Positions 18,698 to 20,501 of a stretch of DNA of 64,000 nucleotides are shown here, piece by piece (position 1 is the stretch's first letter; every line of letters starts with the position of its first letter). The position numbers and the translations under genes are program-made. The DNA lies in contig NZ_JADOTX010000001.1 in NCBI RefSeq assembly GCF_015751765.1, positions 4,278,001-4,342,000 of the forward strand, given 5' to 3'. The stretch comes from Micromonospora ureilytica. Lineage in GTDB: Bacteria > Actinomycetota > Actinomycetes > Mycobacteriales > Micromonosporaceae. The notes beneath the pieces were generated by a model that was not told where the DNA came from, ran no database searches, and saw only the letters and a list, made by a program, of their open reading frames with translations.

Positions 18698-19174
18698 ATG
18701 ACCGCGCCCGACCGCCTCTCCCCCGGTGACCCCGCGCCCGAGTTCACCCTCGGCACCGACACCGGCGACCAGCTCTCCCTCGCCGACCTGCGCGGCCGCA
18801 AGGTCGTCCTGTACGCCTACCCGGCCGCGATGACCCCCGGCTGCACCAAGCAGGCCTGCGACTTCCGCGACTCGCTCGCCTCACTCCAGGCCGCCGGCTA
18901 CGAGGTCGTCGGCATCTCCCCCGACAAGCCGGAGAAGCTGGCGAAGTTCCGAGAGCGCGACGCGATCACCTTCCCGCTGGTGTCGGACCCGGACAAGGCG
19001 GTGTTGATCGCGTACGGCGCGTACGGCGAGAAGCAGCTGTACGGCAAGACCGTCACCGGCGTGATCCGCTCGACGTTCGTGATCGACGCCGACGGCAAGA
19101 TCGAGCGGGCGCTCTACAACGTCAAGGCCACCGGGCACGTCGCCAAGCTCCGCCGCGACCTCGGCCTGGACTGA
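18698..19174 (+). CDS. bcp: Thioredoxin-dependent peroxiredoxin (Bcp/PrxQ)
   Basis: 158 aa, full length. AhpC/TSA fold with peroxidatic Cys49 in TPGCTKQACDFRD and resolving Cys54 five residues on (CxxxxC), the PrxQ/Bcp pattern; the usual F before T is replaced by AAM. VGISPDKPEKLAKF and STFVIDADGKIE are also diagnostic. Reduces H2O2 and organic peroxides with thioredoxin. Probably leaderless mRNA. Confidence 0.95.
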   Translation: MTAPDRLSPGDPAPEFTLGTDTGDQLSLADLRGRKVVLYAYPAAMTPGCTKQACDFRDSLASLQAAGYEVVGISPDKPEKLAKFRERDAITFPLVSDPDKAVLIAYGAYGEKQLYGKTVTGVIRSTFVIDADGKIERALYNVKATGHVAKLRRDLGLD

Positions 19175-19204: not shown

Positions 19205-19801
19205 GTGGTCCGATACAAGTACACGCCCGAAGCGCTGGCCGCCGCTGCCGCCGTCGCCCGCAACATCACCGAGGTGATGCGGTTGCTCGGCGTACGCGTC
19301 AGCGGTGGCTCGCACGCGCACATCAGCCGGCAGCTCAAGCGGTTCGGCATCGACACGTCGCACTTCACCGGTCAGGCACACAATCGAGGCGTGCGTTGGC
19401 GGCGGATGTCCCCTACAGAACTGCTGGTAGTGCTGCCGGCCGACTCTCGCCGAATTCCAGGGATCCGCCTCAAACGCGCCTTGGCGACAATCGGCCTCCC
19501 CGAGACCTGCGAGGTGTGCGGCACCGGGTCAACGTGGCAAGGCGCCAGACTGACGCTGCACGTGGACCACATCAATGGCGATTTTCTCGACAACCGGCCA
19601 CGCAACCTCCGCCTGCTTTGCCCCAATTGCCACAGCCAGACCTCCACATACGCTGGTCAGCGACGGCCTGCACTCGTCGAGCCCGAGGTGGTCTACGATC
19701 CTGATGCGGTTACTCCGACCGGCTTCCCGATAGGCAGGCGACTGCCGAGTCGGCAGGACTGGCCGTGGACGCTTGTGGAGTTCAGCTTCAAGGGGCCGTA
19801 G
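19205..19801 (+). CDS. HNH endonuclease (homing-type) overlapping a tRNA gene
   Basis: 198 aa, GTG start. Residues ~5-55 form a DNA-binding region (ARNITEVMRLLGVRVSGG followed by AHISRQLKRFGIDTSHF) typical of stand-alone actinobacterial and phage HNH proteins. The HNH core is at ~102-146: Cys102-x2-Cys105, LHVDHINGDFLDNRPRNLRL with D121/H122 and N130, and CPNCH with Cys139/Cys142, so it is zinc-bound and intact. The stop TAG (19799-19801) lies inside the tRNA gene that begins at 19792. It follows bcp by 30 bases. It probably nicks or cuts DNA; target unknown. Confidence 0.85.
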   Translation: MVRYKYTPEALAAAAAVARNITEVMRLLGVRVSGGSHAHISRQLKRFGIDTSHFTGQAHNRGVRWRRMSPTELLVVLPADSRRIPGIRLKRALATIGLPETCEVCGTGSTWQGARLTLHVDHINGDFLDNRPRNLRLLCPNCHSQTSTYAGQRRPALVEPEVVYDPDAVTPTGFPIGRRLPSRQDWPWTLVEFSFKGP

Positions 19802-19865
19802 CCCAACGGCAGGAGGCATGCGGTTTAGGTCCGCACCAGTGCGGGTTCGAATCCCGTCGGCCCCA
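19792..19865 (+). tRNA. Unusual tRNA, anticodon UAG (Leu-type) with a short variable loop
   Basis: 74 nt fold into a clean cloverleaf: acceptor GGGGCCG/CGGCCCC, D stem GCC/GGC with GG in the loop, anticodon stem TGCGG/CCGCA with loop TTTAGGT (anticodon TAG), 5-nt variable loop CCAGT, T stem GCGGG/CCCGT with loop TTCGAAT, discriminator A. Bacterial tRNA-Leu normally has a long (type II) variable arm, so this is atypical. CCA is not encoded, unlike the other two tRNA genes here. Its first 10 bases overlap the HNH reading frame. It may be functional, specialised or a pseudo-tRNA. Confidence 0.8.
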
Positions 19866-19887
19866 CATCGCCTTTAGTGACGACGGA

Positions 19888-19910
19888 TCCTGGCTCGGTC
19901 AGAGCCAGGA
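19888..19910 (+). terminator. Terminator after the HNH-tRNA unit
   Basis: 9-bp stem (19888-19896 with 19902-19910) and a 5-base loop, 22 bases past the tRNA end. Confidence 0.65.
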
Positions 19911-19964
19911 CTGAGTGTCGGGCGCGTCACTGTCGCGGGTCGTGGGCCTGGTCGTCGGGTCAGG

Positions 19965-20501
19965 ATGGCGAGCGTGAGTCTGCGCTTCGTCCTCGACCCC
20001 GATCTGACCCCGCGGCTACGTGCCGAGATCGTCGACCTCTGGGTGGACGTCAGCAACGCAGGCGGCGCCGTCGGCTTCGTGCCACCGGTCAACGCCGCCG
20101 AGGTGCACGTCATCGCCGGCCCGACATTCGCCGGCATCGTCGACGGACCGGACCGGCTGCTGGTCGGTTACTCCGGGGGTCGACTGGCGGCTATGTTGAT
20201 CTTCAGTGACAACCGTTTCCCGCTCAAGGCGCACTGGTGTGTGTTGAAGCGGGTGATGGTCCACCCGGACACCCAGGGCGCCGGCTACGGCTCGGCGCTG
20301 ATGGTGGAGGCCGCCCGGCTGGGCAGGGTGTTCGGCCACGAGGCGCTGCACATCACGGTGCGCGACGGGCTGGGGCTGGACAAGTTCTACGGTCGCCTCG
20401 GGTATCGGGAGATCGGCCGACTGCCGGGCGCGCTGCGGGTGGCCGCCGACGACGACCGGGACGAGATCCTGATGTGGCTCGATCTGACGGTGGCCGACTG
20501 A
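19965..20501 (+). CDS. GNAT-family N-acetyltransferase
   Basis: 178 aa. GNAT fold with the acetyl-CoA pyrophosphate loop QGAGYGSALMVEAARL after the strand VLKRVMVHPD, and the C-terminal GLDKFYGRLGYREIGRLPGA. The protein should acetylate a small amine or protein; the substrate is not deducible. ATG 19965 was taken. It stands alone, converging with the expansin-like gene 4 bases away. Confidence 0.85.
   Translation: MASVSLRFVLDPDLTPRLRAEIVDLWVDVSNAGGAVGFVPPVNAAEVHVIAGPTFAGIVDGPDRLLVGYSGGRLAAMLIFSDNRFPLKAHWCVLKRVMVHPDTQGAGYGSALMVEAARLGRVFGHEALHITVRDGLGLDKFYGRLGYREIGRLPGALRVAADDDRDEILMWLDLTVAD

What the first reader, a model, noticed from the sequence alone, without database searches (positions are those of the whole stretch)
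19205..19910. HNH endonuclease gene fused end-to-start with an atypical UAG-anticodon tRNA
The stop codon of an intact HNH gene lies within the first 10 bases of a perfect cloverleaf. The tRNA has anticodon UAG (reads Leu CUA) but a 5-nt variable loop, whereas bacterial tRNA-Leu has a long variable arm. It lacks encoded CCA, while tRNA-Lys and tRNA-His in this window have it. Both lie between one leaderless promoter and one terminator, so they form a single unit. Possible roles: a selfish cassette that restores or marks a tRNA target, a specialised tRNA, or a decoy. Other stand-alone HNH genes may share this pattern.
Basis: partly seen in the sequence, partly recalled or inferred. Interest (0 to 1): 0.78.

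Follow-up and report, generated by a model that had tools for sequence, protein, structure and literature searches.

The report
Nuclease-linked short leucine tRNA allele
In this soil bacterium the only tRNA that matches the leucine codon CUA lacks the long arm that bacterial leucine tRNAs normally carry, and it is swapped between species as one block with a virus-type DNA-cutting enzyme, which suggests that a selfish gene has been replacing a host tRNA gene.

Summary
An intact HNH gene (19205-19801) ends at U8-A9-G10 of a tRNA (19792-19865, anticodon UAG) with a 5-nt variable loop. It is no pseudo-tRNA: it is the genome's only tRNA-Leu(UAG), its stems covary, it keeps leucine identity bases, and CUA codons sit at leucine positions. 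In 101 genomes of the genus the locus behind bcp holds either this short (class I) tRNA (20) or a normal long-arm one (81), never both. The HNH gene is present in 43 of 101, each time beside this tRNA; 15 of the 43 look damaged, and all 10 class I alleles without it keep a relic of its 3' end. On a tree of the flanking genes the tRNA class, with the HNH nuclease half, changes 12 times among 35 species, as often as random. Viral relatives of the HNH sit beside tRNA-Leu genes (odds ratio 9). Best reading: a free-standing homing nuclease specialised on tRNA-Leu genes that replaces the host gene with its own cleavage-proof tRNA. Swapping, association and decay are shown; cutting, immunity and charging are inferred. 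A LAGLIDADG gene beside a class I tRNA-Leu(CAA) repeats the layout.

The parts
18698..19174 (+). bcp-type peroxiredoxin (AhpC-TSA), conserved upstream flank of the locus
   Evidence: Pfam PF00578; 67-180 bases upstream of the tRNA in 18 of 19 HNH-less loci of the genus fetched, 889 bases in the 19th, L170
19205..19801 (+). HNH endonuclease gene, 198 aa, GTG start, stop codon TAG inside the tRNA
   Evidence: Pfam HNH, PHROG 10822 E 1e-44, PADLOC homing endonuclease E 7e-11
19205..19354 (+). codons 1-50, helix-turn-helix half, shared between the two allele types and inherited with the flanks
   Evidence: class changes 11 against shuffled 11.1; three helices at residues 8-46 in the AlphaFold2 model
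19355..19798 (+). allele-specific part of the HNH gene: nuclease domain (best Pfam stretch residues 102-145, 19508-19639) and C-terminal tail
   Evidence: class changes 2 against shuffled about 11 for codons 51-150; identity to five near class II species falls from 94-100% (bcp to codon 50) to 48-75% here
19688..19701 (+). GTGGTCTACGATCC, promoter-like motif inside the HNH 3' end, kept in HNH-less class I copies
   Evidence: GTGGTYTAC in 10 of 10 HNH-less class I copies of the genus, 0 of 9 HNH-less class II; promoter role inferred
19792..19865 (+). class I (5-nt variable loop) tRNA-Leu, anticodon UAG at 19826-19828, no encoded CCA
19799..19801 (+). HNH stop codon = U8-A9-G10 of the tRNA
19884..19913 (+). 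hairpin behind the tRNA, possible terminator without T run
   Evidence: -20.7 kcal/mol, 0 of 200 shuffles as low
19965..20501 (+). GNAT acetyltransferase, downstream flank in the 35 named Micromonospora loci
   Evidence: Pfam PF00583; tblastn hits; absent from some HNH-less stretches

Best explanation
The tRNA is the cell's working tRNA-Leu(UAG): a short (class I) leucine tRNA that stands in place of the usual long-arm (class II) gene at the bcp locus. The HNH gene in front of it is a free-standing homing-type endonuclease of a family, common in viruses, that lives beside tRNA-Leu genes. Proposed mechanism: the HNH protein cuts tRNA-Leu(UAG) alleles of the other type; repair copies the HNH nuclease half plus its own structurally different, cleavage-proof tRNA from the donor, with crossovers in shared flanks (upstream one inside the HNH gene near the HTH/HNH linker, downstream one just behind the tRNA). 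The host keeps a functional tRNA, so the swap is tolerated; later the HNH gene decays and is lost while the foreign tRNA stays. Shown: sole tRNA, allelic alternation, block exchange, near-invariant tRNA-Leu association, intact motif under purifying selection, decay and relics. Inferred: cutting, its site, self-immunity, charging by LeuRS.
For: Sole UAG tRNA in own genome among 66 tRNA hits. 101 genomes of the genus: 20 class I, 81 class II, 0 both. bcp+GNAT tree of 35 species: class changes 12 times (shuffled 11.1-11.3), class I as one clade rejected, p-AU 4e-13. HNH codons 51-150: 2 changes; codons 1-50: 11 (34 rows). HNH in 43 of 101, all beside the tRNA, 15 of 43 in pieces, with a stop or very short. 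HNH 3' relic in 10 of 10 HNH-less class I, 0 of 9 class II. dN/dS medians 0.15 and 0.28. Viral relatives: adjacent tRNAs are Leu in 63 of 98 against 71 of 437 elsewhere in the same loci, p 2e-20. All 77 viral tRNAs found with the class I D-arm motif have Leu anticodons (80 listed loci of 120). Leucine identity bases: A73, U8, A14, G18G19, A20a in 44 of 44, A15 in 41, U48 in 36 (bases after PMC9976931, passages). CUA at Leu positions 18 of 18. One LeuRS gene above cut-off in each of 16 genomes, 8 class I and 8 class II. Second locus: LAGLIDADG ORF (or its pieces) beside class I tRNA-Leu(CAA) in 15 of 17 loci.
Against: HNH is not tied to class I: in the genus it is in 10 of 20 class I and 33 of 81 class II genomes (p 0.46), so it also sits before class II alleles. 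Within class I, HNH core distances follow the flanks (Mantel r 0.88-0.93), which looks like two old allele lines sorted or exchanged among near relatives, not rampant long-range transfer. Outside the genus most class I loci fetched have no HNH (16 of 20), and none of those 16 shows a clear relic of the Micromonospora type (best 8 of 200 shuffles as good). No cleavage, conversion or charging was measured. Fold search gave no significant match.
Confidence: 0.65

Rival explanations
1. Balancing selection acts on the tRNA itself: tRNA-cutting toxins or phage systems attack one tRNA-Leu(UAG) shape, so two shapes are kept by frequency-dependent selection, and the HNH gene is a passenger.
For: Two allele lines that track the flanks within each class and alternate between sister species; HNH-less alleles of both types persist.
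Against: The exchanged block includes the HNH nuclease half, not the tRNA alone; HNH is under purifying selection and its viral relatives also sit beside tRNA-Leu; every HNH-less class I copy fetched in the genus has an HNH relic (10 of 10).
Confidence: 0.2
2. tRNA genes are recombination hot spots and the HNH gene is an inert resident; swapping is background recombination.
For: Recombination at this locus is plainly frequent.
Against: The two flanks agree with each other much better than with the HNH core (Mantel 0.77 against 0.27-0.32 over all 33 rows); motif residues are invariant in 17 sequences and dN/dS is low.
Confidence: 0.1
3. The HNH protein is domesticated and serves the host, for example in processing or regulating the overlapping tRNA.
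For: Overlap of reading frame and tRNA is seen in many species.
Against: No hit at E 1e-15 in 58 of 101 congeners and damaged in 15 of 43; class I tRNA persists without it.
Confidence: 0.04
4. A pseudo-tRNA or decoy unrelated to CUA decoding.
For: Odd structure for a bacterial tRNA-Leu.
Against: Only UAG tRNA in the genome; 120 double-change cells with 100% pairing; CUA at Leu sites 18 of 18.
Confidence: 0.01

Closest known systems
Phage T4 SegB, free-standing homing endonuclease of the tRNA gene region (PMC2988022, passages; PMC13096335, abstract start in search listings 24 and 56)
   Same: Free-standing nuclease among tRNA genes, inherited at high frequency in mixed infections; promoters of neighbouring genes embedded in such nuclease genes favour retention (PMC2988022)
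   Different: SegB is GIY-YIG and phage-borne; here an HNH in a bacterial chromosome beside the sole tRNA-Leu(UAG), with two structurally different tRNA alleles
PHROG 10822 phage HNH endonucleases
   Same: Best family, residues 3-153; viral relatives of the HNH are often flanked by tRNA-Leu
   Different: Viral copies sit in tRNA arrays, before or behind the tRNA; the chromosomal ones lie 5' of the tRNA, mostly overlapping it or within about 150 bases
Goddard-Burt homing cycle of invasion, decay and loss (recalled)
   Same: Intact, damaged and lost copies coexist among congeners
   Different: Loss leaves a foreign tRNA allele behind
Synthetic cleave-and-rescue and home-and-rescue gene drives (search listing only)
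   Same: Nuclease plus cleavage-proof version of an important gene in one cassette
   Different: Natural, bacterial, and rescue by a differently built tRNA; neither cutting nor rescue is shown here
Bacterial class II tRNA-Leu
   Same: Leucine identity bases, anticodon, locus
   Different: No long variable arm; [quoted passage not shown]

Membership tests
Free-standing homing endonuclease (HNH) | Intact nuclease motif under selection | tested here: met
   D121, H122, N134, H143 and Cys 102/105/139/142 invariant in 17 sequences (their catalytic or zinc role is recalled); dN/dS 0.15 and 0.28
Free-standing homing endonuclease (HNH) | Fixed target locus | tested here: met
   43 of 43 in the genus beside tRNA-Leu(UAG); 31 of 33 class-wide, the others at tRNA-Leu(UAA) and tRNA-Arg(CCU)
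Free-standing homing endonuclease (HNH) | Sporadic presence with decay | tested here: met
   43 of 101, 15 of them damaged; relics 10 of 10
Free-standing homing endonuclease (HNH) | Cassette moves independently of flanks | tested here: met
   but within one class it follows the flanks
Free-standing homing endonuclease (HNH) | Cuts the allele that lacks it, spares its own, biased inheritance | not testable with these tools
   needs biochemistry and crosses
tRNA-Leu | Leu anticodon and identity bases (A73, A14, G18G19, A20a, A15-U48) | tested here: met
   A15 in 41 and U48 in 36 of 44, the rest in 44 of 44
tRNA-Leu | Decodes a Leu codon | tested here: met
   indirect: CUA at Leu positions 18 of 18, sole UAG tRNA
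tRNA-Leu | Long variable arm (bacterial class II) | tested here: not met
   5 nt in 43 of 44, 6 nt in one
tRNA-Leu | Charged by LeuRS | not testable with these tools
   one LeuRS gene above cut-off in 16 of 16 genomes
Anti-phage defence system | Matches a defence gene set | tested here: inconclusive
   PADLOC hits over the nuclease domain only (homing endonuclease, ZorE, one weak effector); three proteins scanned, neighbours not scanned

The most novel reading that the evidence does not exclude
The locus is a natural cleave-and-rescue duel: two self-immune tRNA-Leu(UAG) alleles, each with its own nuclease aimed at the other's tRNA gene, have kept converting each other over the history of the genus (and with further tRNA shapes in Streptomyces-like genomes), so that the shape of a tRNA thought fixed in bacteria is set by a selfish-gene arms race.
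Probability: 0.35. Interest if true: 0.92.

Novelty: new variant of a known kind. Interest (0 to 1): 0.8.

Why it matters
It indicates that bacterial chromosomes can run on a class I tRNA-Leu, against the stated rule that tRNA-Leu has a long arm outside animal mitochondria, and it offers a mechanism: tRNA-specific homing nucleases that swap the host gene for their own version. About one in six sampled Actinomycetes genomes (52 of 296) carries such a tRNA. It makes testable whether selfish nucleases remodel the translation machinery, what LeuRS really needs from its tRNA, and how a natural rescue-type drive behaves over evolutionary time.

Tried and rejected
Chance pseudo-tRNA, decoy and code reassignment were rejected. 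Missing CCA as a sign was rejected. HNH frames that run on through the tRNA in Streptosporangiaceae were not followed as a fusion protein because their ends vary. Fold search was uninformative: no match at E 0.001, best weak hit ScoMcrA (the sequence search likewise, E 0.019). Consensus promoter and terminator scan: nothing. An extra LeuRS for class I tRNA: none among 16 genomes (listing cut below the cut-off rows). Enrichment of class I with HNH: not seen within the genus (p 0.46), weak class-wide for the R1 type (12 of 34 against 40 of 262, p 0.007; species are not independent, and other class I shapes in HNH-less genomes would be missed). A 50-locus pattern search gave a cut listing and was replaced by the models. 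For exclusivity class-wide, searched 50 of the 52 class I genomes; its listing was cut, 38 genomes are listed in full, and none of their matches is a class II UAG tRNA (judged by eye).

Dropped rows: L067; L067 and L005; L015 from the within-class I sums; L057 and L072 from the class I alignment; L072 from the counts. G440 was HNH-positive but its neighbour was not fetched.

Papers: nothing on class I tRNA-Leu in bacterial chromosomes, or on HNH genes with tRNA-Leu, was seen in searches (open-access PMC only). I saw listings, and passages of PMC7609411, PMC9976931, PMC9437257, PMC2988022, PMC4810241 and PMC2265525. A legend in PMC2265525 notes that several Sec, Ser, Tyr and Leu tRNAs of its set have short arms, without saying which.

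Full report
What is there. Behind a bcp-type peroxiredoxin gene lies a 198-aa HNH gene (19205-19801) whose stop codon is bases 8-10 of a tRNA at 19792-19865. Rfam and ARAGORN both accept the tRNA (53.2 bits; Leu, anticodon UAG). Its variable loop is 5 nt. A hairpin without T run follows, then a GNAT gene.

It is the only tRNA of its kind in the genome. Of 66 Rfam tRNA hits, all were read (window). Class II tRNA-Leu exist for CAG, UAA and GAG. The only UAG tRNA is the one in the finding, and the only CAA tRNA-Leu is class I too. In 40 long window ORFs CUA makes 19 of 1620 Leu codons, so the codon is rare but used. In class I loci 18 of 18 comparable CUA codons stand where class II species mostly have Leu by other codons; the other way round it is 23 of 27. 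The class I tRNAs keep A73, U8, A14, G18G19 and A20a in 44 of 44, A15 in 41 and U48 in 36, which are the E. coli leucine elements listed in PMC9976931 (passages). That review says that E. [quoted passage not shown] Sixteen genomes, eight of each class, have one LeuRS gene above the cut-off. Covariation in 34 distinct class I sequences is strong: all cells paired, 120 double-change cells against 36 in shuffles.

The locus is dimorphic. Of 80 HNH relatives from named genomes plus own, all 81 have a UAG tRNA: 45 class I and 36 class II. In an even sample of 101 genomes of the genus, class I occurs in 20 and class II in 81 (79 by model, G148 by L162, G114 by pattern), and no genome has both. All 10 HNH-less class I copies sit 91-180 bases behind bcp. 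Class-wide, 52 of 296 Actinomycetes genomes have this class I type. Of 50 of these searched for a class II partner, 38 are listed in full and none shows one. Of 20 such loci fetched, 16 have bcp in the stretch and 4 have the HNH.

The block moves. Against five near class II species (L017, L018, L021, L024, L026) the window is 94-100% identical through bcp and the first 50 HNH codons, then 48-75% to the end of the tRNA, then 88-95% in GNAT. On a bcp+GNAT tree of 35 species, tRNA class changes 12 times, as often as random, and one clade is rejected (p-AU 4e-13). HNH codons 1-50 behave like the flanks (11 changes) while codons 51-150 follow the tRNA class (2 changes). The change falls near the poorly modelled linker (residues 58-64) between the HTH and HNH halves of the AlphaFold2 model. 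Over 33 rows the two flanks agree (Mantel 0.77), but the HNH core agrees little with them (0.27-0.32); within class I it does (0.88-0.93), within class II partly (0.44-0.52). So the two lines look old and swap mostly among near relatives.

The nuclease behaves like a homing gene. It is found in 43 of 101 congeners, each time within about 150 bases of the tRNA by coordinates (L162 for G148). Fifteen of the 43 come in pieces, hold a stop or cover under 70 profile positions. Motif residues are invariant in 17 sequences and dN/dS is 0.15 (class I, 75 pairs) and 0.28 (class II, 187 pairs). All 10 HNH-less class I copies keep a relic of the HNH 3' end (9 with 0 of 200 shuffles as good, one with 1 of 200), against none of 9 class II copies and no clear one among 16 class I copies of other genera (best 8 of 200). 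The relic includes a promoter-like motif; nuclease genes that carry a neighbour's promoter are known in T4 (PMC2988022, passage). L015 groups with the class II-type HNHs yet stands before a class I tRNA; in G058, which by contig and position looks like the same genome, a second HNH fragment lies between them, its type untested.

The family is a tRNA-Leu specialist. Best family is phage PHROG 10822. Among 80 viral relatives, 72 loci hold tRNAs and 52 have a tRNA-Leu adjacent; adjacent tRNAs are Leu in 63 of 98 against 71 of 437 elsewhere in 76 distinct loci (p 2e-20). Near the viral HNH, 43 of these 63 are class II and 20 class I. Class I tRNA-Leu occurs widely in viral contigs: 77 tRNAs with the D-arm motif, all with Leu anticodons (chosen by motif). 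Class-wide, 34 of 296 genomes have the HNH at E 1e-25; of 33 examined, 31 lie at tRNA-Leu(UAG), 1 at tRNA-Leu(UAA) and 1 at tRNA-Arg(CCU). Of the 31, 18 tRNAs are class I by length and 13 class II. Twelve of 15 HNH-bearing genomes of one unnamed genus (g23, Streptomyces-like by my inference) show two HNH matches, and further class I shapes occur there. A second locus has the same layout with another nuclease: a LAGLIDADG ORF overlaps the 3' end of class I tRNA-Leu(CAA) in the own genome, and it or its pieces lie beside that tRNA in 15 of 17 loci.

Judgement. The simplest account is homing with rescue: the nuclease cuts the other allele and repair brings in its own working tRNA. Against a simple link, the HNH is as frequent with class II as with class I alleles in the genus (33 of 81 and 10 of 20), which fits two rival nuclease-tRNA alleles better than one invader. 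Cutting, immunity and charging are untested. Balancing selection on tRNA shape is the main rival.

Noticed in passing
L130:3224-4082 (G000:C1 about 497.7-498.6 kb): Class I tRNA-Leu(CAA), the only CAA tRNA-Leu of the genome, with a LAGLIDADG ORF overlapping its 3' end; the ORF or its pieces lie beside this tRNA in 15 of 17 CAA loci.
   Followed up: partly
   Followed up: no
L112 (G000:C1:3631500-3633900): Array of about 20 tRNA genes in this genome; tRNA arrays in relatives (L142, L148, L150) hold class I tRNA-Leu with GAG or CAG anticodons, L145 one with GAG.
   Followed up: no
G014:C19:36957-36985 (genome of L016): A second class I UAG-like match in Actinoplanes xinjiangensis besides the HNH-linked one; it may be a second tRNA-Leu(UAG), not examined.
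   Followed up: no
L121 (G000:C1:2916285-2916413): tRNA-like gene interrupted by about 55 nt near the anticodon loop; may be a remnant.
   Followed up: no
L403, L411: Members of the same HNH family beside a class I tRNA-Leu(UAA) and beside tRNA-Arg(CCU).
   Followed up: no
L067:4543-6646: About 2.1 kb lie between HNH and tRNA in Micromonospora fulviviridis, content not examined.
   Followed up: no
L351:407-480: ARAGORN calls a tRNA-Pyl (CTA) in a viral contig.
   Followed up: no
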